Positions 1 through 10,312 of a DNA stretch of 42,079 bases are shown here, piece by piece (the stretch's first letter is position 1; each line of letters opens with the position of its first letter). The notes beneath the pieces were generated by a model. That model was not told the origin of the DNA. It did no database searches and worked only from the letters and a program-made list of their open reading frames with translations. Position numbers and translations under genes: made by a program. Source of the stretch: Ruminococcus sp. (GTDB lineage Bacteria > Bacillota > Clostridia > Oscillospirales > Acutalibacteraceae); contig JAFUJH010000002.1 of the NCBI GenBank assembly GCA_017473775.1, positions 1-42,079 on the forward strand. The letters run 5' to 3'.

Positions 1-147
1 ACTGCAAAGATCTGTGGTTGGAGCCTTTCAAAAACCGTCATGCGGTAGGAGTGATACACCAATCCACAGCACCATTTACAGTGTAGCATATTTGTCCTTG
101 GAGAGGGACTCTAAAAACTACTACTTTATTATACGAGGAGTGATAAC

Positions 148-1305
148 ATGGCAAAGCGCAGACCGTCGGGAGACGGAATGATAAGAAGAAAAAATAAAAA
201 TCTGTGGGAAGGCAGAATCACCATAGGTTATAAAAATGACGGCTCGTCAATGTTCAAATATGTCTACGGCAAGACTCAGCGAGAAGCTCTTCTGAAACTT
301 CACAAACTCCTTGAAGAGTACAAAGGTATAAAACTCACCGAAGAAAGCAACATCACAGTCGGTGAGTGGCTTGACCGCTGGCTTAACGAATATATGATAT
401 TCGCGGTCAGGGAAAGCACTTGGGAAGGCTATGAATCAATAGCAAGGCTTTACATCAAGCCTCAGATTGGTGACAAGCCTTTAGCCTTGCTGACCACTGT
501 GGATATTCAGAAGATGTATAACTATCTTCGCGAGAACGGCAGGGTTAACAAAACCGCTCGAAAGGGTGCAGGACTCTCCGACAGCTATGTCCGTAAAATA
601 CATATGATGCTTCACGAAGCGCTTGAGATGGCAGTCAGCGAAAAGCTGATTGTCAAAAATCCCACAGTAGGCACAACAGTTCCCAAGAACAACTATCCGC
701 CAATGAAAGTCCTTAATGAAGCTGAGCTTCAGAAGTTCATGGAAGTTATAAAAGCGGATGAAGTCTGGTATGACTTCTTCTATACTGAGCTTACCACCGG
801 GCTTCGCAAAGGTGAACTCTGCGGACTTATGTGGAGCGACTTTGACGCGGAGAAAGGCACCCTGAAAGTCAGCAGAACAGTCAGGCAAAAACGCGGAGGC
901 GGTCTTGAGTGGGGCGAAACCAAAACCGAGGCAGGCAGGAGAACCATCCTCCTGCCTCCAAGCACCGCTGAGATTCTCAAAGACCGAAAAGAAAAGGTTA
1001 AGGGTCAGTGGATATTCCCTAACATCTATAAGCCCGAACTTCCTATGCACCCTGAGAGCGCGTATAACCGACTGAAGACTCTGCTGAAAAATGCAGGCTT
1101 GCCTCGGATTCGCTTTCACGACCTTCGCCACACCTTCGCAACCCACGCACAGTCAGGCGGTGTGGATGTGAAGACTCTCTCAAAGATACTTGGTCATACC
1201 AATGCTTCCTTCACCATCGATACCTATACCCACGTTACAACGGATATGCAAAAGCGAGCTTCGGATATCGTGGGCGGGTTTATGGATGAGATTGCAGAGG
1301 TGTGA
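148..1305 (+). CDS. Tyrosine recombinase / phage-type integrase (first of a tandem pair)
   Basis: Site-specific recombinase that would cut and rejoin DNA through a phosphotyrosine to integrate or excise the element. Residues 1-60 form an AP2-like arm-binding domain (GDGMIRR, WEGRITIGY). A SAM-like core-binding domain follows (about 65-175), then the catalytic domain with the classic set: Arg in TTGLRKGE (about 220), HDLRH (about 324), LGH and the nucleophile Tyr in DTYTHV (about 359). Length (385 aa) is normal for the family. The start has AGGAG at 136-140. Its end overlaps the region of the second recombinase start, so the two are probably translated together. The catalytic set is complete, so it is likely active. 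Confidence 0.95.
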   Translation: MAKRRPSGDGMIRRKNKNLWEGRITIGYKNDGSSMFKYVYGKTQREALLKLHKLLEEYKGIKLTEESNITVGEWLDRWLNEYMIFAVRESTWEGYESIARLYIKPQIGDKPLALLTTVDIQKMYNYLRENGRVNKTARKGAGLSDSYVRKIHMMLHEALEMAVSEKLIVKNPTVGTTVPKNNYPPMKVLNEAELQKFMEVIKADEVWYDFFYTELTTGLRKGELCGLMWSDFDAEKGTLKVSRTVRQKRGGGLEWGETKTEAGRRTILLPPSTAEILKDRKEKVKGQWIFPNIYKPELPMHPESAYNRLKTLLKNAGLPRIRFHDLRHTFATHAQSGGVDVKTLSKILGHTNASFTIDTYTHVTTDMQKRASDIVGGFMDEIAEV

Positions 1306-1307
1306 TT

Positions 1308-2753
1308 ATGGCAAAGAAACGCAAAGTCGGAGAAGGTACTTTAAGACTTCGAAACGACGGCAGATGGGAAGGTCGAGTTGTCACAGGCTATGATGACAAG
1401 GGCTATCCCATAACTAAAAATGTGACTTCGAAAGATAAGAAAGTCTGTATGGAAAAGCTTGAGGAACTCAAGAAAGAGTACGGCACGGTAAGCACAAGGT
1501 GCAGTCCCGATATGCCTTTCGGGGATTGGGTTGACTTCTGGTACAAAAACTTCTGTAAGCCTGGAATCAGACTTTCAACTCAGGCACATTACGAGAATCA
1601 TATTTACGACCACATCATCCCCGATATTGGTAAAATTCCTCTCAACGAACTGACTCAGGCAGACCTTCAGCAGTACTATGCAAACTTAAAAGCTGACGGC
1701 AGACTTTTCAGACGAGAGGAAAACGGAACAGGACTTTCCAACGCAATGGTCAGGGGTATCCATAAAGCTTGCCGAAGTGCTTTGAAAAAAGCAGTTGAGG
1801 AAGGTCTCATAGACGCAAACCCAAGCAAGGGTTGCAAACTTCCGCCTAAAAGAAGTGCAGAAATGCAACCTCTCTCAAAAGAAGAAGCAAGGCGGTTTCT
1901 GGCACAGGCGAAAGAGGATGGAGATTACTATGAGATATTCATTCTGGAGCTTGCCACAGGACTCAGAATCGGTGAAGTCTTAGGTCTTCAATGGGATGAC
2001 ATTAACCTTGACACAGGCGAGATTTACATTCAGCGTCAGGCGACTAACATTGACGGAAATCTGCATATATCCGTTCCCAAAACCAAAGGCTCTGTCCGCA
2101 CAATTTTACTGCCTCAGTCGGTGACCAATATGCTCAAGGCGTACAAGGAGACCGTAAACTCAAAGTGGGTGTTTCCCTCTCCCAAGAAAGACGATACCCC
2201 AAGGCATCCTACCTCGGTCAGGTCGGCGTTGGCACGGACACTTAAAAAAGCACAGTGCAAGCATGTAAGGTTTCACGATTTGCGACATACTTTCGCAACC
2301 TTCTCTCTGGAAAACGGAATGGATATAAAGACTCTGTCCGATATTCTCGGTCACGAGTCAGCGGCAACCACCCTTGATGTGTACTCCCATGTCAGCGATA
2401 CAATGCGCCTGCAGGCAGCTGTCAGCATCGACCGCAAAATTGGCGGTACAAACGCTCAAATGCCCGAACTCGAGAAAGTATCCAATGACCCCGAAAAAAC
2501 GCGACCAGAGCCAAAATTCGAGCCACAAAAGCGAAAAATGCGCAAGCGAGGCACAGGCTGTGTCACAAAACTTTCCGAAACCCTCTACGAAGGCAAATAC
2601 TCCCCCAACGACGCCTACGGCAAACGTATCAGCCGCAACGTCTACGCCCCCACCGAAGAAGAATGCGAAGCAAAACTCGCAGAACTCATCAAAGAAATGA
2701 ACCGCGAAATCGCTGAAGAAAAGGCAAAACTAAAAGCAGAAACAAAACCATAA
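1308..2753 (+). CDS. Tyrosine recombinase with a second arm-binding domain at its C-terminus
   Basis: Second site-specific recombinase. The catalytic residues are all visible: Arg in ATGLRIGE (about 218), HDLRH (about 322), LGHES and Tyr in DVYSHV (about 358). The N-terminus (GEGTLRLRNDGRWEGR) matches the first integrase. I chose ATG 1308 over GTG 1302 because AGAGGTG lies just before it and the start MAKKRK mirrors MAKRRP of its neighbour. Unusual: after the catalytic domain, residues about 411-465 repeat the arm-binding pattern (GTGCVTKL, YEGKY, AYGKRISRNVY, then a Lys/Glu-rich helix). Tandem recombinases usually work as a pair on one mobile element; that role is inferred. Confidence 0.93.
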   Translation: MAKKRKVGEGTLRLRNDGRWEGRVVTGYDDKGYPITKNVTSKDKKVCMEKLEELKKEYGTVSTRCSPDMPFGDWVDFWYKNFCKPGIRLSTQAHYENHIYDHIIPDIGKIPLNELTQADLQQYYANLKADGRLFRREENGTGLSNAMVRGIHKACRSALKKAVEEGLIDANPSKGCKLPPKRSAEMQPLSKEEARRFLAQAKEDGDYYEIFILELATGLRIGEVLGLQWDDINLDTGEIYIQRQATNIDGNLHISVPKTKGSVRTILLPQSVTNMLKAYKETVNSKWVFPSPKKDDTPRHPTSVRSALARTLKKAQCKHVRFHDLRHTFATFSLENGMDIKTLSDILGHESAATTLDVYSHVSDTMRLQAAVSIDRKIGGTNAQMPELEKVSNDPEKTRPEPKFEPQKRKMRKRGTGCVTKLSETLYEGKYSPNDAYGKRISRNVYAPTEEECEAKLAELIKEMNREIAEEKAKLKAETKP

Positions 2754-2780
2754 AAAGCCGAAATTAAAACATACAAAACA

Positions 2781-2805
2781 GAGGGTAGCCCATAAAGCTA
2801 CCCTC
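2781..2805. terminator. Hairpin after the recombinase pair
   Basis: Perfect 9-bp stem GAGGGTAGC / GCTACCCTC with a 7-base loop. It lies 28 bases after the second recombinase. No clear T-run follows on the plus strand; the minus-strand side is T-rich, so direction is uncertain. Confidence 0.55.
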
Positions 2806-3191
2806 AAATTCTGCACCGCTGTAATCAGTAAAGAAAACTGTGATTGCATTTTAGAAATCAGATATTAGAGATGTGTTTAGGTGTAGTATATACATTGAAT
2901 TATAGAAATAATACAGAGATAAGAGAGCACAAGTAACGTCGTTTTAAATTTATTATATAACCGTGATGTTTGCTGCTTTTATGAAAGTAACTCTCATAAT
3001 CAATACAATGAATGTTTTTTGTGAACGTTGTGTTTTTTGTCTGGATTTTGTTTAAGTACGGCCTTCACAACAGATTCTACCACATTGGAACACTATGATA
3101 GATAAAATTATCATTTAATGTCGACGGAGGCATAGTATTTCACTTCAAGAACAGCAGTGAGGTGTGAGAATGAGAAAATAAACTATTAGTA
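2806..3191. other. AT-rich intergenic stretch between recombinases and nuclease gene
   Basis: No open frame with a credible ribosome binding site and no tRNA-like or repeat structure was seen. It separates the plus-strand recombinase genes from the convergent minus-strand operon, and marks the change to the AT-rich composition of the cargo region. Confidence 0.5.
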
Positions 3192-4232
3192 TTATTTTAT
3201 ATTATTCCAAAACAAAAAATCTATACTAAATTCATTTTTATTAAACCAGTGTATATCAATTTCAAAAACTTGTTTTGGTTCAGTTACTCGCCTTATTTTC
3301 GGTAACAAAATTTCTATTGGCACCAACCCGTTTGCCACAAACATTATTACATATTCGCTTATAGCGGAACGAAGCGAGTGTCTAATACCTGCCTTGCCTT
3401 TTTTCGCTTCCGCTTTAGTTTTTTCTAACATATTCCAAAACTCAGTTATTTCATACCTATGAAAATGAGCAAAGAATAGTAGTATGTCATAGCTTCCATT
3501 TTCTGTTGAACTATTTACAGTGCGTTCTGCTAATAGATGCAAAAAATTCCGGAAATATTGGATGGTTAACTTCTGTTGAGCAGATTTTTTCATTCCATAT
3601 TTCTCTGCTAAAAACTGATGTACTAGAGATTCGTTTTTTTGTGGTTTAATAAGAACCATTTCATTATCGGTTCCGTTCAAAATCATAATATCGATATCGC
3701 CATGTTCTTCATATATTGATTTTCTGTATTCTAGATATTCGACTATTTCCATAGGGGTAACTAGAATGCGGCACATTTCACAGTAATCGGTAAAAGACAT
3801 GCAGTTTATGTTCATACCTGAATCTGAATGTTTTCTCAACAAATGTGGGTAATTATCAATTTGATTATTTTCAAATACTACCAAAGGGATTACTTCTGCA
3901 TCTGGTTGCAGCGATATATTCTGACCACGCTTATTGTTAAAATTTGGGAGTTTTCCAGATGAAATGAACTGTAAAGTTTCCTTCACTTGACCTTTTGCGT
4001 TCTTACATTTCTTTTGAAGCCATTTGGCTTCGATAAAAGAGTCGTTGGTTTGATCTTTATCGTTACGAGATTTAAGCTGAATTGCAATAATAATGTCTCC
4101 AATATTGATAAGCAGATCAGCAACTTCTACTTCTGTGGATCCCTCTGGAGTAAATTTCAATTCATCAATTACAAGATCCTTGAAGAAATAATCCTCAGAA
4201 AAAGCACTTAACAGGTGTTCTGATTTGTTCAT
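3192..4232 (-). CDS. Probable PD-(D/E)XK-fold nuclease of unknown family
   Basis: I do not recognise the full-length family. Residues 34-56 read E-V-E-V-A-D39-LL, a hairpin, then I-I-A-I-Q52-L-K54-S, which fits the nuclease core pattern acidic...Asp...(E/Q)xK between two beta strands, as in Mrr-like restriction enzymes. The remaining 290 residues are predicted mixed helix and strand, with a Lys/Glu-rich segment near 265-285. No membrane segment or signal peptide. GGAGG precedes the start. It lies 23 bases downstream of the HTH gene and is surely co-transcribed with it. A DNA- or RNA-cutting defence or toxin role is inference from the motif and island setting. Confidence 0.6.
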   Translation of the reverse strand: MNKSEHLLSAFSEDYFFKDLVIDELKFTPEGSTEVEVADLLINIGDIIIAIQLKSRNDKDQTNDSFIEAKWLQKKCKNAKGQVKETLQFISSGKLPNFNNKRGQNISLQPDAEVIPLVVFENNQIDNYPHLLRKHSDSGMNINCMSFTDYCEMCRILVTPMEIVEYLEYRKSIYEEHGDIDIMILNGTDNEMVLIKPQKNESLVHQFLAEKYGMKKSAQQKLTIQYFRNFLHLLAERTVNSSTENGSYDILLFFAHFHRYEITEFWNMLEKTKAEAKKGKAGIRHSLRSAISEYVIMFVANGLVPIEILLPKIRRVTEPKQVFEIDIHWFNKNEFSIDFLFWNNIK

Positions 4233-4255
4233 AAGTTCCTCCGTATATGGTAATG

Positions 4256-5356
4256 TTAATTATACTTTTTTCGTGCTTTAAACTTTGCGAATCCATCGTC
4301 ATAAATAGGATCATTAATTATAAAATCCTGTACGGATTCAATATTAAGATAATTCATCAGTTTGATCAGATTATATCCATCCGGAATAGTTTCTCCCTTT
4401 TCCCATTTTTGATATGTGCGTAGCTGTACACCTACAGCGTCGGCTAAGGCTTGCTGCGTAATGTCGATTCGTTTGCGATAAAACTTAAGCGCATCTTTGT
4501 CAAACTTCATAGCAAGAGGACCAAAATAGATCGGATACCATGTATCTACACCGTCGTCATCATTATAAATATTGGGCATATATATTTTTGTTTCTGGAGT
4601 AATTCCGATGTGTAACTCCTTCTCTAGTTTAGGTGTGCCACCCATAGAATAGCAATCGTTTACTTTAACATACGCAGCATTTTCAATCCAAATACCGATC
4701 CATTCAAGTATGGGCATATTGTTATCACACGGAAACTCACCTCCAATAATAATTTCTTTGTCCTGACGTAAGAAATCTTCATTAAAGCCAACAAGTCCTG
4801 GAACATAAATAATAGGGTCTTCTCCAGCCAACACCAAGATGCGATTATATTCATATAGAAAATCTTGCGGATACTTGTTATCGATGTGCAACACATAACA
4901 CAAATCCAGATAATGAACCCATTTAAAAAACACATCTGTTCTCCCATAAGTACCAGTTAAAGTGATAGGATAACCCATAATTTCGGGCACCCCCATTTTG
5001 TATTTATAAAAGAGCTTTTCTAACGCCATGTATACTTCTTCGAAATTAGCAAGCTGATCATATTTTGCTTGTCCGTGAATTAATGACAACAAGTCGCCAT
5101 GCTGATTCTTATCGAAATCTGGTTCGTAAAAATAAAACGGAACTCGCTTGACAAAAGTATCAACATCTATGGTATGAAAACCAAAACCTTCTTTGACCAT
5201 ACTGATATTTTTTCTATGTTGATATTTTAATGCTAAATCAAATATCTCATCACCTACATGGTCATGAATACTTAAATAATTCACAACCTTTGCAGAATCA
5301 AAGTATTTTTGATTTATATGATTTCTCACAAACTGTTCCTGTTCTTTGCTAATCAT
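4256..5356 (-). CDS. Protein with a C-terminal XRE-type helix-turn-helix, partner of the nuclease
   Basis: Residues about 290-345 form a Cro/cI-like helix-turn-helix (ITQQALADAVGV, RTYQKWEKGE). The first 280 residues are unrecognised, soluble and rich in aromatic residues, with no clear catalytic motif. A C-terminal HTH behind a long N-terminal domain is the reverse of the usual regulator layout. AGGAGATG precedes the start, and a promoter with TTGAAT and TATAAT lies upstream at 5392-5420. It is first in a two-gene operon with the probable nuclease. It may be an autoregulating antitoxin or a sensor that controls the nuclease; neither is proven. Confidence 0.6.
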   Translation of the reverse strand: MISKEQEQFVRNHINQKYFDSAKVVNYLSIHDHVGDEIFDLALKYQHRKNISMVKEGFGFHTIDVDTFVKRVPFYFYEPDFDKNQHGDLLSLIHGQAKYDQLANFEEVYMALEKLFYKYKMGVPEIMGYPITLTGTYGRTDVFFKWVHYLDLCYVLHIDNKYPQDFLYEYNRILVLAGEDPIIYVPGLVGFNEDFLRQDKEIIIGGEFPCDNNMPILEWIGIWIENAAYVKVNDCYSMGGTPKLEKELHIGITPETKIYMPNIYNDDDGVDTWYPIYFGPLAMKFDKDALKFYRKRIDITQQALADAVGVQLRTYQKWEKGETIPDGYNLIKLMNYLNIESVQDFIINDPIYDDGFAKFKARKKYN

Positions 5357-5391
5357 AATAACATCTCCTGTTTGTTTTGGCTTATGATAAA

Positions 5392-5420
5392 ATTATATAT
5401 GAATATCAGTTCACATTCAA
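5392..5420 (-). promoter_or_regulatory. Sigma-70-type promoter of the HTH/nuclease operon
   Basis: On the minus strand TTGAAT (5420-5415) and TATAAT (5397-5392) are separated by 17 bases. The start codon is about 35 bases downstream of the -10 box. Confidence 0.65.
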
Positions 5421-5950
5421 GCGTCAAATGATTCGTATAAAAGCGAACAAAATTACATTTATGTTTTAAAATAATAGCTTGTAAACTTTATTTTTACAGA
5501 TAATACGAATTATGATTACAATGATCTTTTAACATTACCCCTATAAATTAATGGTAGATTTATGGGGTACCGGTACCATCTAATAGTCTTATATAATTAC
5601 ACAACAAAAAGCATTGCAGATAATAGGATATGCCTTCGAACTGCAATGTTTGATTTAGCTTATTTACTTGGGTTCTTGTAAAAAATACCGATAAAACGAT
5701 GAAACCACAATTGATACGATTGTTCAATTGCGGTTTCTGATTAGATATAGTGGAAGGATTTGAATCAACGCCTTCGTTTATGAGTAAATGTGCTTATTGA
5801 TTTGTTTGTATTTTTTATATTTTAAAGCTATTTGTAAACATCCTATTCAAATTCTATCGTCGGCGTCAAATTTAATGTTGGATTTATGGCTGATATATTC
5901 GTACCATCGCCACAATTTATGATATATTATAAATACAAGGAGGGTGAAAT
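5421..5950. other. Noncoding stretch with a palindrome and two hairpins
   Basis: No gene seen. It holds a perfect palindrome GGTACCGGTACC (5566-5577), a hairpin GCATTGCAG/CTGCAATGT (5611-5619 with 5641-5649) and a second inverted repeat (5701-5713 with 5725-5737, arms GAAACC-A-CAATTG and CAATTG-C-GGTTTC). An imperfect 20-base direct repeat ending in GATTTATGG occurs at 5546-5565 and near 5869-5888. The hairpins could be terminators or regulatory RNA; the palindrome could be an operator. Confidence 0.5.
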
Positions 5951-6090
5951 ATGAATATCAATTCTTTAGATAGTTTTATAGAAGCGCAAGCGAATATGTA
6001 CGTAAGGGTGATGGCACTATCTTTAAAGGTATTGAGAAGAAAATAGAGAGAATATACATCAGGAACATTGAATTGCTGATATTTGTATGA
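5951..6090 (+). pseudogene. Small open frame, perhaps a frameshifted or decayed gene
   Basis: AAGGAGGGTG sits ideally before ATG 5951. The first frame gives 31 residues beginning MNINSLDSFIEAQA and stops at 6046. Stepping back one base near 5992 continues in a more protein-like frame (EYVRKGDGTIFKGIEKKIERI) to a stop at 6090. The good ribosome binding site suggests a real gene start; the switch of sensible coding between frames suggests a frameshift. Function unknown. Its end overlaps the promoter of the noncoding RNA, so it may be a remnant cut by insertion of that cassette. Confidence 0.35.
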
Positions 6091-6096
6091 TATAAT
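6068..6096 (+). promoter_or_regulatory. Promoter of the reverse-transcriptase cassette and its RNA
   Basis: TTGAAT (6068-6073), 17-base spacer, TATAAT (6091-6096). The expected start of transcription, about 7 bases on, falls at 6103, exactly where the left arm of the long inverted repeat of the noncoding RNA begins. Confidence 0.8.
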
Positions 6097-6102
6097 TTTA
6101 TT

Positions 6103-6235
6103 GTATTAGAGCCTATAGTGAAAACTATGCTTTTCTGGAGTATTCTAGGAGAAAATGTAATTAACATTCCTTTGGGAATTTTTAGTCTTTCAAAGTAATT
6201 TGAAGGTTTTGACTTGTCTAAAGAGGCTCTAATAC
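6103..6235 (+). ncRNA. Structured noncoding RNA upstream of the SLATT and reverse transcriptase genes
   Basis: The ends pair perfectly: GTATTAGAGCC (6103-6113) with GGCTCTAATAC (6225-6235). Inside the closed 133-base unit are a hairpin ATAGT-GAAA-ACTAT (6115-6128, GNRA-type loop), a stem TTTTCT/AGAAAA (6131-6155), a stem ATTCC/GGAAT (6166-6179) and an 8-bp hairpin with a GTAA loop (6187-6206), itself enclosed by TTTAG/CTAAA. A sigma-70 promoter places the transcript start at its left end. It has no open frame. Most likely it is the template or cofactor RNA of the reverse transcriptase; this role is inferred from position and structure. A regulatory leader is the alternative. Confidence 0.7.
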
Positions 6236-6259
6236 ACCTTTTAAGGGAGGTTTGATTTT

Positions 6260-6823
6260 ATGGATAAGGAAAAATTGAAGAATACCATATGGACTACACG
6301 TATTTCACGTGTAAATGCAGAATCAAGGCTATTAAGAAAAAATAGTTTTATTCAGGGTGTGAATATATACTATTCTTGCGTAACCATTATTTTTTCTATA
6401 CTGACCCTAATTGAGAATAATTATGCACTTAGTTTGATAACAGTATTTATGACAATATCATTATTAGTAACTATACTTTATCTTAATTCACTAAAGTATT
6501 CTGAATGCGCAAGAGATTACAGAAGCAACTATACAATGCTTTATAAATTAGAGTTAGAATTAAACAGGGATATTTCAGAAGAGAGAATAAAGCAGATAGA
6601 GATAGAATATTGTGATTTGTTAGATACTTCGTGTAATCATATAGCGTTTGACTATTATTGTACGATGTATGGAGCAGATAAGGATTTTAGAAAAAACAAA
6701 TGGAATAGTATTAGACATAAATATTATTTTGGGATAATTTGGCGCTTAATTGTTAAAGTGTTAGTTTTACTACTTCCAATAGCCTTGTATCTTGGAGCGT
6801 GGTGGTATAATGCAAGCGTATAA
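6260..6823 (+). CDS. SLATT-type membrane protein, probable effector of the RT system
   Basis: 187 residues. Two transmembrane helices at about 35-55 and 58-78 are followed by the SLATT-like signature (KYSECARDYRSNYTMLYKLELEL) and a soluble helical part. A third hydrophobic helix lies near the C-terminus (about 160-182). SLATT proteins are membrane effectors coupled to nucleotide-signalling or reverse-transcriptase defence systems, where pore formation on activation is proposed. AAGGGAGG lies 9 bases before the start. The gene follows the noncoding RNA by 24 bases, and its last 14 bases overlap the RT gene. Assignment rests on my reading of the pattern, without a profile search. Confidence 0.75.
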   Translation: MDKEKLKNTIWTTRISRVNAESRLLRKNSFIQGVNIYYSCVTIIFSILTLIENNYALSLITVFMTISLLVTILYLNSLKYSECARDYRSNYTMLYKLELELNRDISEERIKQIEIEYCDLLDTSCNHIAFDYYCTMYGADKDFRKNKWNSIRHKYYFGIIWRLIVKVLVLLLPIALYLGAWWYNASV

Positions 6824-8120
6824 AATTTGGAACAAACTATTCTCCGAAAAGCATATAAAAGAGCATTATTATGAGAAGGTGCATTCCAAAACATCGGTAG
6901 GATTAGATAAAATAACAACAAAAAATTTTGAATTAGAAATTGATGAGAATATTCAAGTCATATTAAGAAAAACCGGTAATCAATCATATAAATTCACAAG
7001 ATATAAGCAATTGTTATTTTTGAAAGGTCCCAATAAATATCCGAGATGTGTTTCAGTACCTACTGTAAGAGATAAACTTACACTTTCTGTATTGAATGAA
7101 GTAATAGTAAAAGTTTTTGGTGAAGGATGTAACGCTAGGCTACCACAGTTGATCGTTCAAGAAATTTCTGATGAAATTGGAAATTACGATTCATTTATAA
7201 AATTAGACATCGCGTCTTTTTATTCGAATATTAATCAGGAAAATCTGATGTCTATATTGAGAAGTAGAATTCGAAAAGCGGAAATCTTATCGTTGATTAA
7301 GTCTGCTATTGAAACAGAATCATTGCCTTACCCAACAAAAGAAAAAGTAAAGAGAGGCAAAAAAACAAAAGGAATACCAGAAGGTTTGCCTATATCAAAT
7401 GCTTTGGCTAATATATATTTATCAAAGTTTGATCTCAAATTTAATAGTATGGGTAATATTAAATATTGGCGATATGTTGATGATATTTTGATTTTGGTCA
7501 ATAAAAAGGACTTGGAAAAAACAGAAAGAATTGCTAATGAGGAAATTGTAAAGCTTGGTCTTGAATTTAATTCAAAGAAAGATAGTGGAAGTGTTGTTCA
7601 AGGATTTGAATATTTGGGATATAAAATAGACAGATTGAGTATATCTGTGCGTAATAGCAGTATATTAAAATTCGAACAAGCTATAGAGGATTTAGTAAGA
7701 ACAATAAATAAAGAAAACGATAAATTTATAGAGTGGAAACTTAATAACAAAATTACAGGATTTGTGTGGAATGACAATAAATACGGATGGGTTTTCTTCT
7801 ATTCGCAGATACAGGACATGAAGCTGTTGTTTCATATGGACAATCTTCTATTGAAAATACTACGAAGATATAATCTTGATGGGCGTATTAAACCTAAAAG
7901 GTTTATCAGAACTTATTTCGAGATCACCAAAGCATTACATACTACTAATTACATACCGAACTTTGATAAATATACTATAGAAGATAAGAAGAATGTTTTG
8001 CACAGTATATATGGAGATAAGGCTCTAAAATGGAATGATGAAGAAATTGAAAGTAAGTTTCGATATATAATGTCAAAAGAAATTAAAGATATCGAAAAGG
8101 ATATAGAACATTTTTCTTAA
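6810..8120 (+). CDS. Reverse transcriptase (defence-type, SLATT-associated)
   Basis: RNA-directed DNA polymerase of 436 residues. Motifs in order: fingers region (LDKITTKNFE, CVSVPTVRDKL), palm motif A FIKLDIASFYSNIN (Asp about 133), motif B KGIPEGLPISNALANIYL (about 187-205), catalytic YVDD (about 222-225), then FEYLGYKI and a thumb with GWVFFYSQI. There is no retron NAxxH motif, and ITG in the thumb does not sit where retron VTG does. There is also no maturase or integrase domain. This fits the bacterial unknown-group/Abi-like reverse transcriptases. Start ATG 6810 overlaps the SLATT gene and uses its GGTGG. Low GC, like its neighbours. Predicted role: making DNA from the upstream RNA in phage defence. 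Confidence 0.92.
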   Translation: MQAYKIWNKLFSEKHIKEHYYEKVHSKTSVGLDKITTKNFELEIDENIQVILRKTGNQSYKFTRYKQLLFLKGPNKYPRCVSVPTVRDKLTLSVLNEVIVKVFGEGCNARLPQLIVQEISDEIGNYDSFIKLDIASFYSNINQENLMSILRSRIRKAEILSLIKSAIETESLPYPTKEKVKRGKKTKGIPEGLPISNALANIYLSKFDLKFNSMGNIKYWRYVDDILILVNKKDLEKTERIANEEIVKLGLEFNSKKDSGSVVQGFEYLGYKIDRLSISVRNSSILKFEQAIEDLVRTINKENDKFIEWKLNNKITGFVWNDNKYGWVFFYSQIQDMKLLFHMDNLLLKILRRYNLDGRIKPKRFIRTYFEITKALHTTNYIPNFDKYTIEDKKNVLHSIYGDKALKWNDEEIESKFRYIMSKEIKDIEKDIEHFS

Positions 8121-8148
8121 TGCATTTTTGTATAAGGGTGGTTTTCTT

Positions 8149-8685
8149 ATGACGGATATAAAAATTAAAGAGTTTTCACAAACATTTAAAAATGCAATAA
8201 TAGAGGCACAAGAAAACGACCAATTTGCAGATGACATGTTATTTTGTAAGTTCCCTAAAGCTTGTTGCGGAGATACTTGTTATCTGTTAGGCGAATTTCT
8301 AAAACGTCGAGGAATAAACACTATCTATGTTTGTGGTGACTTTAACGGCCAAACTCACGCATGGTTGGTTGTAAAAGATGAGAGAGTCGAAGAACCTATA
8401 AAATACGAATGCACTATTCCAGATAATGTTTTAGGTTGTTTTCGTTCATACATCGGCAGAGAAATTGAACAAACGATTCGTTCGGAACGTTATGAGGAGA
8501 AAAATCTGATAAATGGATTAATTATTGATATAACAGCGGATCAATTTGAAGAAAGTTCAGTGCATGTTGGTCCTATGGATTCATTTCATAGCAATTTTAA
8601 ATTTATGTACGCACATGATTACGATGGGATTGGTACAGAACGATTAGAAGGTTTGCTAAATGTGATATTAGACTATATTAAATGA
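8149..8685 (+). CDS. Papain/transglutaminase-like cysteine protein following the RT
   Basis: 178 residues counted from ATG 8149, which has AAGGGTGG 9 bases ahead; the longer TTG start would swallow that site. A Cys-His-Asp triad typical of the transglutaminase-like/papain fold is visible: CCGDTC (Cys40 or Cys44), QTHAW (His70) and IIDITADQF (Asp127). The spacing and the C-x-L-L-x-x-F-L helix fit that fold. No signal peptide or membrane segment, so it acts in the cytoplasm. It starts 28 bases after the RT stop on the same strand and ends at a strong terminator, so it may be a third component of the system. Substrate unknown. Confidence 0.55.
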   Translation: MTDIKIKEFSQTFKNAIIEAQENDQFADDMLFCKFPKACCGDTCYLLGEFLKRRGINTIYVCGDFNGQTHAWLVVKDERVEEPIKYECTIPDNVLGCFRSYIGREIEQTIRSERYEEKNLINGLIIDITADQFEESSVHVGPMDSFHSNFKFMYAHDYDGIGTERLEGLLNVILDYIK

Positions 8686-8724
8686 GAGAATTTACACCGC
8701 AGTAAACAATGAAATAGGCGAAAG

Positions 8725-8763
8725 AAAAAGCACTGAGGCGAATGAATCGCTTCAGTGCTTTTT
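8725..8763. terminator. Bidirectional terminator between the island and the tRNAs
   Basis: AAAAAGCACTGA-GGCGA pairs with TCGC-TTCAGTGCTTTTT, 17 bp with one G-T pair, A-run and T-run on the two sides. It can end both the plus-strand cassette and the minus-strand tRNA transcript, and touches the encoded CCA end of tRNA-Val. Confidence 0.9.
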
Positions 8764-8838
8764 GGTGGGAACAACAGGGCTCGAACCTGTGACCCTCTGC
8801 TTGTAAGGCAGATGCTCTCCCAGCTGAGCTATGCTCCC
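8763..8838 (-). tRNA. tRNA-Val (anticodon TAC)
   Basis: On the minus strand the cloverleaf starts GGGAGCA and ends TGTTCCC-A-CCA. D arm AGCTCAGCTGGGAGAGC, anticodon loop CTTACAA and T arm CAGGTTCGAGCCCTG are all intact. CCA is encoded. The 3' end faces the accessory island, a common place for integration. Confidence 0.96.
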
Positions 8839-8875
8839 GTTTACGAGGCAGGATTCGTGATGAAAACTGCCTTTT

Positions 8876-8952
8876 TGGTCGGGGCGACAGGACTTGAACC
8901 TGCGGCATCTTGCTCCCAAAGCAAGCGCGCTACCAAACTGCGCCACGCCCCG
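8876..8952 (-). tRNA. tRNA-Pro (anticodon TGG)
   Basis: Minus-strand cloverleaf with acceptor CGGGGCG/CGCCCCG, anticodon loop TTTGGGA, T arm with GGTTCAAGTCC and an encoded CCA. It is 37 bases upstream of tRNA-Val and shares its promoter. Confidence 0.96.
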
Positions 8953-9247
8953 AAATCTTCTGGGTTGTGCTGATTTTAAGTTGTGAAAACTGATGTTTTT
9001 GCGAGAAATCCATCAACTGTGGACTGCATGTGGTCGTTAGTGGTTTTTCTCTGCTCGGGGTTTCGTTTGAGATACCCGAAAGCCCGATGAATACAGGCTT
9101 TTTGAAAGAGGGGCTTTTTCGCTTAGAAAACGTAGTCCCGTTCCCAAAAACTTCGTGCTACCAACAGGATAATAATCATGATAGCTTTGCAATGTCGCCG
9201 ACATTTCTCGCTTATGCTTGCTGTATATCGGCATCAGTGCTTCCAAC
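8953..9247 (-). other. Long transcribed leader ahead of the tRNA pair, possible unknown RNA
   Basis: About 295 bases lie between the predicted transcription start and tRNA-Pro. No protein gene is convincing. It contains a perfect inverted repeat AATGTCG/CGACATT around 9192-9206 and a stem AAAGCCTG/CGGGCTTT at about 9080-9102. I could not match it to 6S, SRP or RNase P RNA. It could be a processed leader or an unrecognised small RNA. Confidence 0.4.
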
Positions 9248-9254
9248 CAAATTA

Positions 9255-9283
9255 TTATACTGAAAACTCTTCGCATTGTCAAC
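9255..9283 (-). promoter_or_regulatory. Consensus promoter of the tRNA operon
   Basis: Minus strand TTGACA (9283-9278), exactly 17 bases, TATAAT (9260-9255): a perfect sigma-70 match, as expected for stable RNA. Confidence 0.85.
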
Positions 9284-9356
9284 TACATATTTGCAACTTT
9301 TGGGGGTTTTCGCACTTATATTCTTAGCATATGAGATTCCCCTGCTCCGCTATGGT

Positions 9357-9683
9357 TTACTGCTGAGGGACCGCCGCATAAAAGACGAGGTCATCCGTGC
9401 CGATGTTAATAAGGGTATGGATCTGACCCTTTTTACAATAGTGGCAGGTGCCCTTCGTGAGGATTTCCTCCTCCCCGTCAAGGATCGCTTTACCTGTGCC
9501 TGAGAGGATAAAAATAATCTCGCTTGAGGTTTCGTGGCAATGGACACCGATAGAGCAATTCGGCGCAAGCTTACCCTTCATAATTCTGTTGCTTTCGTCT
9601 GCATACATTTTGGCAACGGTATCCCCCTCACCGCCGTAGAAATTGTGTATTACTGTTTCGCTGATATTATCAAAATCTATCAT
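9357..9683 (-). CDS. Small single-domain cupin protein
   Basis: 108 residues. The cupin metal-site pattern is present: GVHCHETSSEIIFILSGTG (motif 1 with His, His, Glu) and HTLINIG (motif 2 with His). One cupin barrel and nothing else. The start at 9683 has AAGGAG 8 bases upstream; a longer frame to 9746 lacks such a site. Substrate unknown; similar proteins bind small molecules or act as isomerases. It follows the gene ending at 9737 by 53 bases. Confidence 0.8.
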   Translation of the reverse strand: MIDFDNISETVIHNFYGGEGDTVAKMYADESNRIMKGKLAPNCSIGVHCHETSSEIIFILSGTGKAILDGEEEILTKGTCHYCKKGQIHTLINIGTDDLVFYAAVPQQ

Positions 9684-9736
9684 AATGAATCTCCTTTGCT
9701 GATGATTATCCCTTTCTGCATATTGTTTTTCTCTTA

Positions 9737-10312
9737 TTAACGGCACATCCAGCGATACACTTCTTTGTTGACTATAAAGAAGTTATTGAATATATACTCG
9801 TAGAGTTTAGTTGTAGGTAGGGTGTGATTGTCGTATGTGATGATATCCATGGAGATTTCAATATACGGAACAGGTGAGTTAGAAACACCTCTAAAATTCA
9901 AAGATATTTCGTCATAGTATCCTGCAGTGCACTTGTCAGATGTTAAAAAACTTCTGTTGCGGTATGGCTCGAAAGCAGAAACTTTGCAATATGGCAAAAG
10001 TTTTTTTAGTTGTGCATCTGTAAATTTTTCGGCATAAGAAAACAAGACCTCTTCTTTATCTTCCTCGGTTATCAAAAGTTCAGGTTTGAAATCAGATTTG
10101 CCTGACGCAAGATACTTTGCGGCTGATGTTGCTTCTGATGACACTGTAAGATCTCTGAATTGTGTTGTCTGTAATTTCTGAATAACCGCTGAACTTGTGT
10201 GAGTATATCTGATAACATTGTATGCTATTTCTTTTGATGTCAGATTCAGCGAAAGATATGTATAGATGTTATCAGGCCGTCTCTCCTGAAACTCGATTTT
10301 TGAAAAGTACAT
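9737..10312 (-). CDS. Hypothetical protein, 191 residues
   Basis: Not recognised. Soluble, mixed alpha/beta composition, no signal peptide or membrane helix. The C-terminal half contains beta-strand-like stretches (YIEISMDIITYDN) and ends in an aromatic-rich helix (YEYIFNNFFIVNKEVYRWM). AAAAAAGGTG precedes the start. It lies between the PAS protein and the cupin, all on the minus strand, and may be co-transcribed with them. Confidence 0.6.
   Translation of the reverse strand: MYFSKIEFQERRPDNIYTYLSLNLTSKEIAYNVIRYTHTSSAVIQKLQTTQFRDLTVSSEATSAAKYLASGKSDFKPELLITEEDKEEVLFSYAEKFTDAQLKKLLPYCKVSAFEPYRNRSFLTSDKCTAGYYDEISLNFRGVSNSPVPYIEISMDIITYDNHTLPTTKLYEYIFNNFFIVNKEVYRWMCR

What the first reader, a model, noticed from the sequence alone, without database searches (positions are those of the whole stretch)
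6068..8120. SLATT + reverse transcriptase cassette driven by a promoter that starts exactly on a structured RNA
Seen: a TTGAAT-17-TATAAT promoter, then a 133-base non-coding unit closed by a perfect 11-bp stem beginning at the expected transcript start, then a 2-3 TM SLATT-like protein and an overlapping RT with intact YVDD. Known: RT defence systems often use an upstream RNA as template and a membrane or toxic effector. Inferred: the RT copies this RNA and the product, or its loss during infection, controls the membrane protein. SLATT-linked RTs are known among defence-associated RTs (I believe a DRT10-type group, unchecked), but this RNA family in a Ruminococcus-like host may be new.
Basis: partly seen in the sequence, partly recalled or inferred. 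Interest (0 to 1): 0.88.

Follow-up and report, generated by a model that had tools for sequence, protein, structure and literature searches.

The report
DRT10 phage-defence cassette in gut Clostridia
This stretch carries a three-part bacterial anti-phage system (a structured RNA, a membrane protein and a reverse transcriptase) that fits the recently described DRT10 family, whose enzymes copy a short RNA template over and over much as telomerase does; it looks like a divergent new member rather than a new kind of system.

Summary
A TTGAAT-17-TATAAT promoter ends 6 nt before a 133-nt unit closed by a perfect 11-bp stem (6103-6235; z -5.8, 0 of 200 shuffles), followed by a SLATT_5 protein (6260-6823) and an overlapping YVDD reverse transcriptase (ATG 6810, stop at 8120).

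The RT matches PADLOC's RT_UG17 model end to end (1.2e-143). The RT's last residue is Ser (S436), like the published priming serine. Two related Firmicutes loci (L012, L004) share the promoter geometry, a long closing stem and hairpins; two L012 hairpins differ from the window's by paired changes.

Most likely mechanism: the RT, primed by its own C-terminal serine, copies a short template in the loop 3' of the last hairpin into tandem-repeat single-stranded DNA that controls the SLATT membrane effector during infection. The repeat (GTCAA)n is tentative: its UUG-AC-UUG pattern is no better than chance. Covariance models from other DRT10 RNAs did not significantly recover this RNA, so it is a divergent RNA. 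New member of a known kind; modest interest.

The parts
6068..6096 (+). sigma-70-type promoter TTGAAT-17-TATAAT, -10 ending 6 nt before the RNA
   Evidence: same geometry in L012 and L004
6103..6235 (+). predicted DRT10 ncRNA, closed by an 11-bp stem, with several hairpins
   Evidence: MFE -42.8, z -5.77; one match in the own genome; L012 counterpart; covariance model hit not significant (R3: 9.5 bits, E 4)
6187..6206 (+). SL5-like hairpin CUUUCAAA-GUAA-UUUGAAGG, the predicted 5' template boundary
   Evidence: 5 of 8 pairs changed on both sides versus L012 with pairing kept, hand alignment
6207..6224 (+). predicted template loop UUUUGACUUGUCUAAAGA; tentative A-B-A' = UUG-AC-UUG, product (GTCAA)n
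   Evidence: position as in Eco3DRT10; the pattern itself is not beyond chance (48% of shuffles with the position fixed; 78% without)
6260..6823 (+). SLATT_5 membrane protein, predicted effector
   Evidence: PF18160 7e-27, RTasSLATT 7.4e-50
6810..8120 (+). UG17/DRT10 reverse transcriptase, YVDD, C-terminal Ser436 (TTG 6792 is an alternative start)
   Evidence: RT_UG17 477 bits over its full length; alignment; tree

Best explanation
It is a DRT10 (UG17) anti-phage system. One promoter at 6068-6096 drives an RNA that begins at about 6103, and probably the SLATT and RT genes downstream. Inferred from the characterised E. coli systems: the RT binds the ncRNA, starts DNA synthesis on its own C-terminal serine (S436 here), copies a short template in the single-stranded loop just 3' of the last hairpin, slips back by pairing the new 3' end to a repeated alignment segment, and so makes long tandem-repeat single-stranded DNA. 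That DNA probably holds the SLATT membrane protein in check, or triggers it, so that infection leads to membrane damage and abortive defence. Shown here: the parts, their order, the RT family, the C-terminal Ser, the RNA fold and its partial conservation in a relative. Inferred: transcription, priming, template, product, and the effector step, which the paper also leaves unproven.
For: RT_UG17 1.2e-143 over profile positions 1-429 of 429; the next specific family, Drt3a, 1.2e-28. RTasSLATT 7.4e-50. UG17 named DRT10, with an ncRNA upstream of SLATT, protein priming and an A-B-A' template (PMC12632851). C-terminal Ser in 12 of 13 RTs of alignment A1, the 13th ending in Tyr; of 54 viral-contig loci looked at (of 66 returned; the 12 weakest, L086-L097, left out) 42 end in Ser and 7 in Tyr, the two residues reported as primers. 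RNA z -5.77. L012 (54% RT identity) has the same closing stem, folds into the expected layout without constraint, and shows paired changes in SL1 (2 of 5 pairs) and SL5 (5 of 8). Promoter geometry shared with L012 and L004. Tree: window with L012 100/98, with L012 and L004 100/100. The E. coli locus L026 carries the published Eco3 template starting 49 nt upstream of SLATT, which ties the set to the tested system.
Against: Three covariance models built from 12, 18 and 26 DRT10 RNAs of other groups did not significantly find 6103-6235: R1 without filters had no hit there up to E 10, R2 gave 5.4 bits for 6115-6232, R3 9.5 bits, E 4, rank 16 of 42. The A-B-A' pattern in the window loop is only 3 nt and 48% of shuffles do as well; L012 has only 2 nt (95%). 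In the unconstrained MFE part of the proposed template loop is paired; holding it open costs about 4 kcal/mol. The closing stem does not vary between window and L012, so it carries no covariation there. No expression or phage data.
Confidence: 0.9

Rival explanations
1. A retron: the closing stem would be the a1/a2 repeats of an msr-msd RNA and SLATT a retron effector.
For: A 133-nt RNA closed by a long inverted repeat upstream of an RT resembles retron layout (layout recalled; RNA).
Against: RT scores 46 bits against retron_St85 with cut-off 235 but 477 bits against RT_UG17; the Rfam scan at gathering thresholds lists only two tRNAs in the window.
Confidence: 0.03
2. A DRT9-like or DRT3-like system: same RNA position, but a homopolymer or dinucleotide product.
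For: Published DRT9, DRT3 and DRT10 ncRNAs place the template in a comparable loop (PMC12632851; PMC13174585, passages). The window loop begins with four U.
Against: Drt9 model 50 bits, Drt3a 98.7 bits versus RT_UG17 477; the loop has no longer U run and no ACACAC; the UG17 model finds no second RT on this contig.
Confidence: 0.03
3. A UG17 cassette that is no longer active, with a template loop that cannot support repeat addition. (This keeps the family assignment, so it overlaps the best explanation.)
For: Weak A-B-A' in the window and in L012; template loop partly paired in the MFE.
Against: Both reading frames, YVDD, the C-terminal Ser and the promoter are intact; the published Eco1 and Eco2 work with 2-nt A segments.
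Confidence: 0.08

Closest known systems
DRT10 (UG17), Eco3DRT10, PMC12632851
   Same: ncRNA upstream of SLATT and RT; YVDD; C-terminal Ser; RNA of similar length (133 vs 137 nt) with closing stem, hairpins and a loop 3' of the last hairpin
   Different: RNA too divergent for covariance models from other DRT10 RNAs; A-B-A' only 3 nt with a predicted 5-nt repeat instead of 9; RT 35% identical to the Eco3-type L026
L012, uncultured Ruminococcus MAG CANQWA010000016.1
   Same: promoter geometry, identical 11-bp closing stem, hairpin order, SLATT (54%) and RT (54%)
   Different: hairpin sequences and template loop
DRT9 and DRT3
   Same: ncRNA template position according to the papers
   Different: RT family by model score; product according to the papers
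Telomerase
   Same: the repeat-addition mechanism reported for DRT10
   Different: no relation tested here; only the published claim for DRT10

Membership tests
DRT10 (UG17) | RT of the UG17 family | tested here: met
   477 bits, 1.2e-143, profile 1-429 of 429; tree
DRT10 (UG17) | adjacent SLATT protein | tested here: met
   SLATT_5 and RTasSLATT
DRT10 (UG17) | catalytic YVDD | tested here: met
DRT10 (UG17) | C-terminal Ser or Tyr as primer | tested here: met
   last residue is Ser436; only its presence was tested, that it primes was not testable
DRT10 (UG17) | about 137-nt structured ncRNA upstream of SLATT | tested here: inconclusive
   133-nt unit in that place, z -5.77, paired changes versus L012, but covariance searches not significant
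DRT10 (UG17) | A-B-A' pattern in the loop 3' of the last hairpin | tested here: inconclusive
   UUG-AC-UUG present, 48% of shuffles as good
DRT10 (UG17) | tandem-repeat cDNA and phage defence | not testable with these tools
   needs sequencing and plaque assays
Retron | retron-type RT | tested here: not met
   retron_St85 46 bits, cut-off 235; no retron model among the best 25 PADLOC matches shown
Group II intron | maturase-type RT and intron RNA | tested here: not met
   TIGR04416 121 bits, cut-off 300; Rfam gathering scan of the window lists only two tRNAs
DRT9 | Drt9 RT | tested here: not met
   50 bits versus 477 for UG17; the loop holds only a run of four U

The most novel reading that the evidence does not exclude
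The Ruminococcus-type branch (window, L012, perhaps L004) has its own ncRNA subfamily that works with a minimal 2-3 nt alignment segment and makes unusually short, perhaps imprecise, repeats such as (GTCAA)n, showing how little template identity a telomerase-like repeat enzyme needs.
Probability: 0.25. Interest if true: 0.5.

Novelty: new member of a known kind. Interest (0 to 1): 0.38.

Why it matters
DRT10 was characterised with E. coli systems and is tied by its authors to the origin of telomerase. A divergent member from a Firmicutes genome, with an RNA that models of other DRT10 RNAs miss, tests how far the repeat-addition rule and the serine-priming rule extend, and offers a natural pair (window and L012) with one closing stem and different template loops.

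Tried and rejected
Retron, group II intron, DRT9 and DRT3 readings were set aside on model scores. Covariance models R1, R2 and R3 (12, 18 and 26 RNAs) did not significantly find the window RNA. R3 over 22 sources with default filters found nothing, including in the window, L012, L004 and L017; R2 found L012 at its exact place at 11.7 bits, E 0.016, in a 1.1-kb scan without filters. MAFFT alignments of the Firmicutes RNAs are not structural, so pair changes were counted by hand. A pattern search for the closing stem in viral contigs gave one hit, L110, which lies inside a 1070-aa reading frame and is taken as chance.

Relatives are rare. Matches at E <= 1e-70, counting the genome each search was centred on: 2 of 398 phylum genomes (own and G611), 1 of 250 family genomes (own only), 1 of 348 in the class of G611 (G611 only), 1 of 87 in the family of G324 (G324 only), 1 of 321 in the class of G1380 (G1455, new). 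The order search at 1e-40 gave 9 of 394, of which only the window and G324 score like UG17. The genome-contig scan gave 5 loci, one of them (L012) a close relative. The plasmid search matched 1126 records, nearly all by other RTs as far as listed; a second search from L018 at 1e-30 gave 7. In 50,697 phage records none covered 80% of the query, and L018 and L026 RTs had no match at 1e-20. A viral-contig scan with the window RT alone found nothing; with the alignment it gave 66 loci. L019 had no match in E. coli. No repeat of the tRNA-Val end was found in window 1-10000. No DRT10 structure was seen by sequence among solved structures for the RT (29 distinct other RT chains listed) and nothing for SLATT.

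Sets used: promoter geometry was examined at 29 loci; 9 of 29 score 10 or more of 12 matches and 14 of 29 score 9 or more. A-B-A' was examined in 27 hand-picked loops; loci whose loop I could not assign by eye (among them L004, L020, L022, L023, L070, L075, L085) and some near copies were left out before counting, and close relatives within the 27 are not independent. Without fixing the start of A the mean is 4.0 against 3.3 in shuffles.

Full report
The observation. The window carries a TTGAAT-17-TATAAT promoter at 6068-6096, a 133-nt unit at 6103-6235 closed by a perfect 11-bp stem, a 187-aa SLATT gene at 6260-6823 and an overlapping RT gene ending at 8120. The RNA folds at -42.8 kcal/mol, z -5.77, with 0 of 200 shuffles as good. 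Promoter-like matches are not rare in this AT-rich stretch (16 found, 17.6 expected), so the promoter counts mainly because of its position and its conservation.

What it is. The RT matches RT_UG17 over all 429 profile positions at 477 bits; a general RT model has 133 and the next specific family, Drt3a, 98.7. The partner is SLATT_5 / RTasSLATT. I read the abstract, introduction, results, discussion and most figure legends of PMC12632851, not its supplement: UG17 is DRT10, a three-part system of ncRNA, SLATT and RT, with synthesis primed by a C-terminal Ser (likely Tyr in Eco1), a template loop 3' of SL5 with an A-B-A' pattern, tandem-repeat cDNA, and a proposed but unproven link from cDNA to SLATT. 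Passages of PMC8934634 say that 82% of UG17 RTs are found with SLATT_5. The library search for the word DRT10 listed six papers; PMC12632851 and PMC13174585 (passages seen) concern it, the other four do not by their titles.

Relatives. Full-length UG17 RTs were collected from genomes, plasmids, E. coli chromosomes and viral contigs. In an alignment of 13, identity to the window is 28-54%, RYVDD is invariant and 12 of 13 end in Ser, the other in Tyr. Of 54 viral-contig loci examined (66 were returned; the 12 weakest matches were left out) 42 end in Ser, 7 in Tyr and 5 otherwise, two of these five with broken frames; many of the 54 are near copies. An upstream ORF with a SLATT-like N-terminal motif was seen in 45 of 54. 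The E. coli locus L026 has the published Eco3 template CAATGATTCCAAT starting 49 nt upstream of SLATT. In a 43-row tree the window groups with L012 (100/98) and then L004 (100/100). All 35 rows that belong to UG17, four swapped-order ones included, form one side of a branch with 92/79. The five rows that pass NCBIfam's group II maturase cut-off (L006, L007, L008, L011, L028) form a separate group (98/92), and the retron-like L003 lies outside too. L002 and L005 also lie outside and pass no cut-off. The 31 rows without the swapped-order ones are only weakly one group (48/6). Several outside rows have long branches, so their places are unsure.

The RNA. L012 has the same closing stem and folds without constraint into closing stem, SL1, SL2, linker, SL3, SL5 and an open loop. 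The window takes a like shape if its loop is held open, at -38.7 against -42.8. Between the two, 2 of 5 SL1 pairs and 5 of 8 SL5 pairs change on both sides with pairing kept; the closing stem does not vary; SL2 differs in length and was not counted (hand alignment of two sequences). L004 closes with a different 16-bp stem. Promoters with a 17-nt spacer whose -10 ends 6 nt before the RNA stand in the window, L012 and L004; L017 and L032 show no clear one. Against this, covariance models from other DRT10 RNAs do not reach significance on the window, although model R2 reaches 13 of 25 searched loci at E < 0.01, six of which had gone into it.

The template. Over 27 hand-picked loops, 18 have an A of 4 nt or more starting in the first four loop positions, against a shuffled mean of 4.5 and maximum of 12 in 2000 trials; the loops are partly close relatives. 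The window has 3 nt (UUG-AC-UUG), matched by 48% of its shuffles, and L012 2 nt (95%). The predicted product (GTCAA)n is therefore a guess to be tested.

Context. Two tyrosine integrases lie at 148-2753 and tRNA-Val at 8763-8838, which suggests a mobile island next to the tRNA. But the window is a whole contig of a draft assembly, so the left end is unseen, and no repeat of the tRNA end was found.

Verdict. A new, divergent member of DRT10.

Noticed in passing
L074 3983-6229, L080 3938-5682, L081 3977-6222, L082 3980-6221: A UG17 subclade in viral contigs with swapped order: RT first (RT_UG17 421-460 bits in 4 of 4), then a closed structured RNA 18-22 nt after the RT stop, then a SLATT_5 gene (3 of 3 where the stretch reaches that far). 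RTs end in Tyr or ...YPK. Whether this order is in print was not determined; the text of PMC12632851 that I searched says only that the RNA lies upstream of SLATT.
   Followed up: partly
own genome C74 (L003) and C2 (L002): A retron-like RT (RT_II-A 2.4e-45) and another RT with YMDD, of no family above cut-off, in the same genome.
   Followed up: no
window 148-2753 and 8763-8952: Two tandem tyrosine integrases and tRNA-Val/tRNA-Pro suggest a tRNA-linked island; its left end is off the contig.
   Followed up: partly
window 5951-6046: A 31-codon frame starting MNINSLDSFIEAQANMYVR just upstream of the promoter looks like a gene remnant (impression only, no search; sequence).
   Followed up: no
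window 8149-8685: 178-aa ORF downstream of the RT without a family above cut-off.
   Followed up: no
L025 2512-3840: An E. coli DRT10 locus annotated with IS1 inserted in the SLATT gene.
   Followed up: no
L026 3080-5188: The Eco3-type DRT10 locus is in 185 of 5426 complete E. coli genomes, all places on chromosomes.
   Followed up: no
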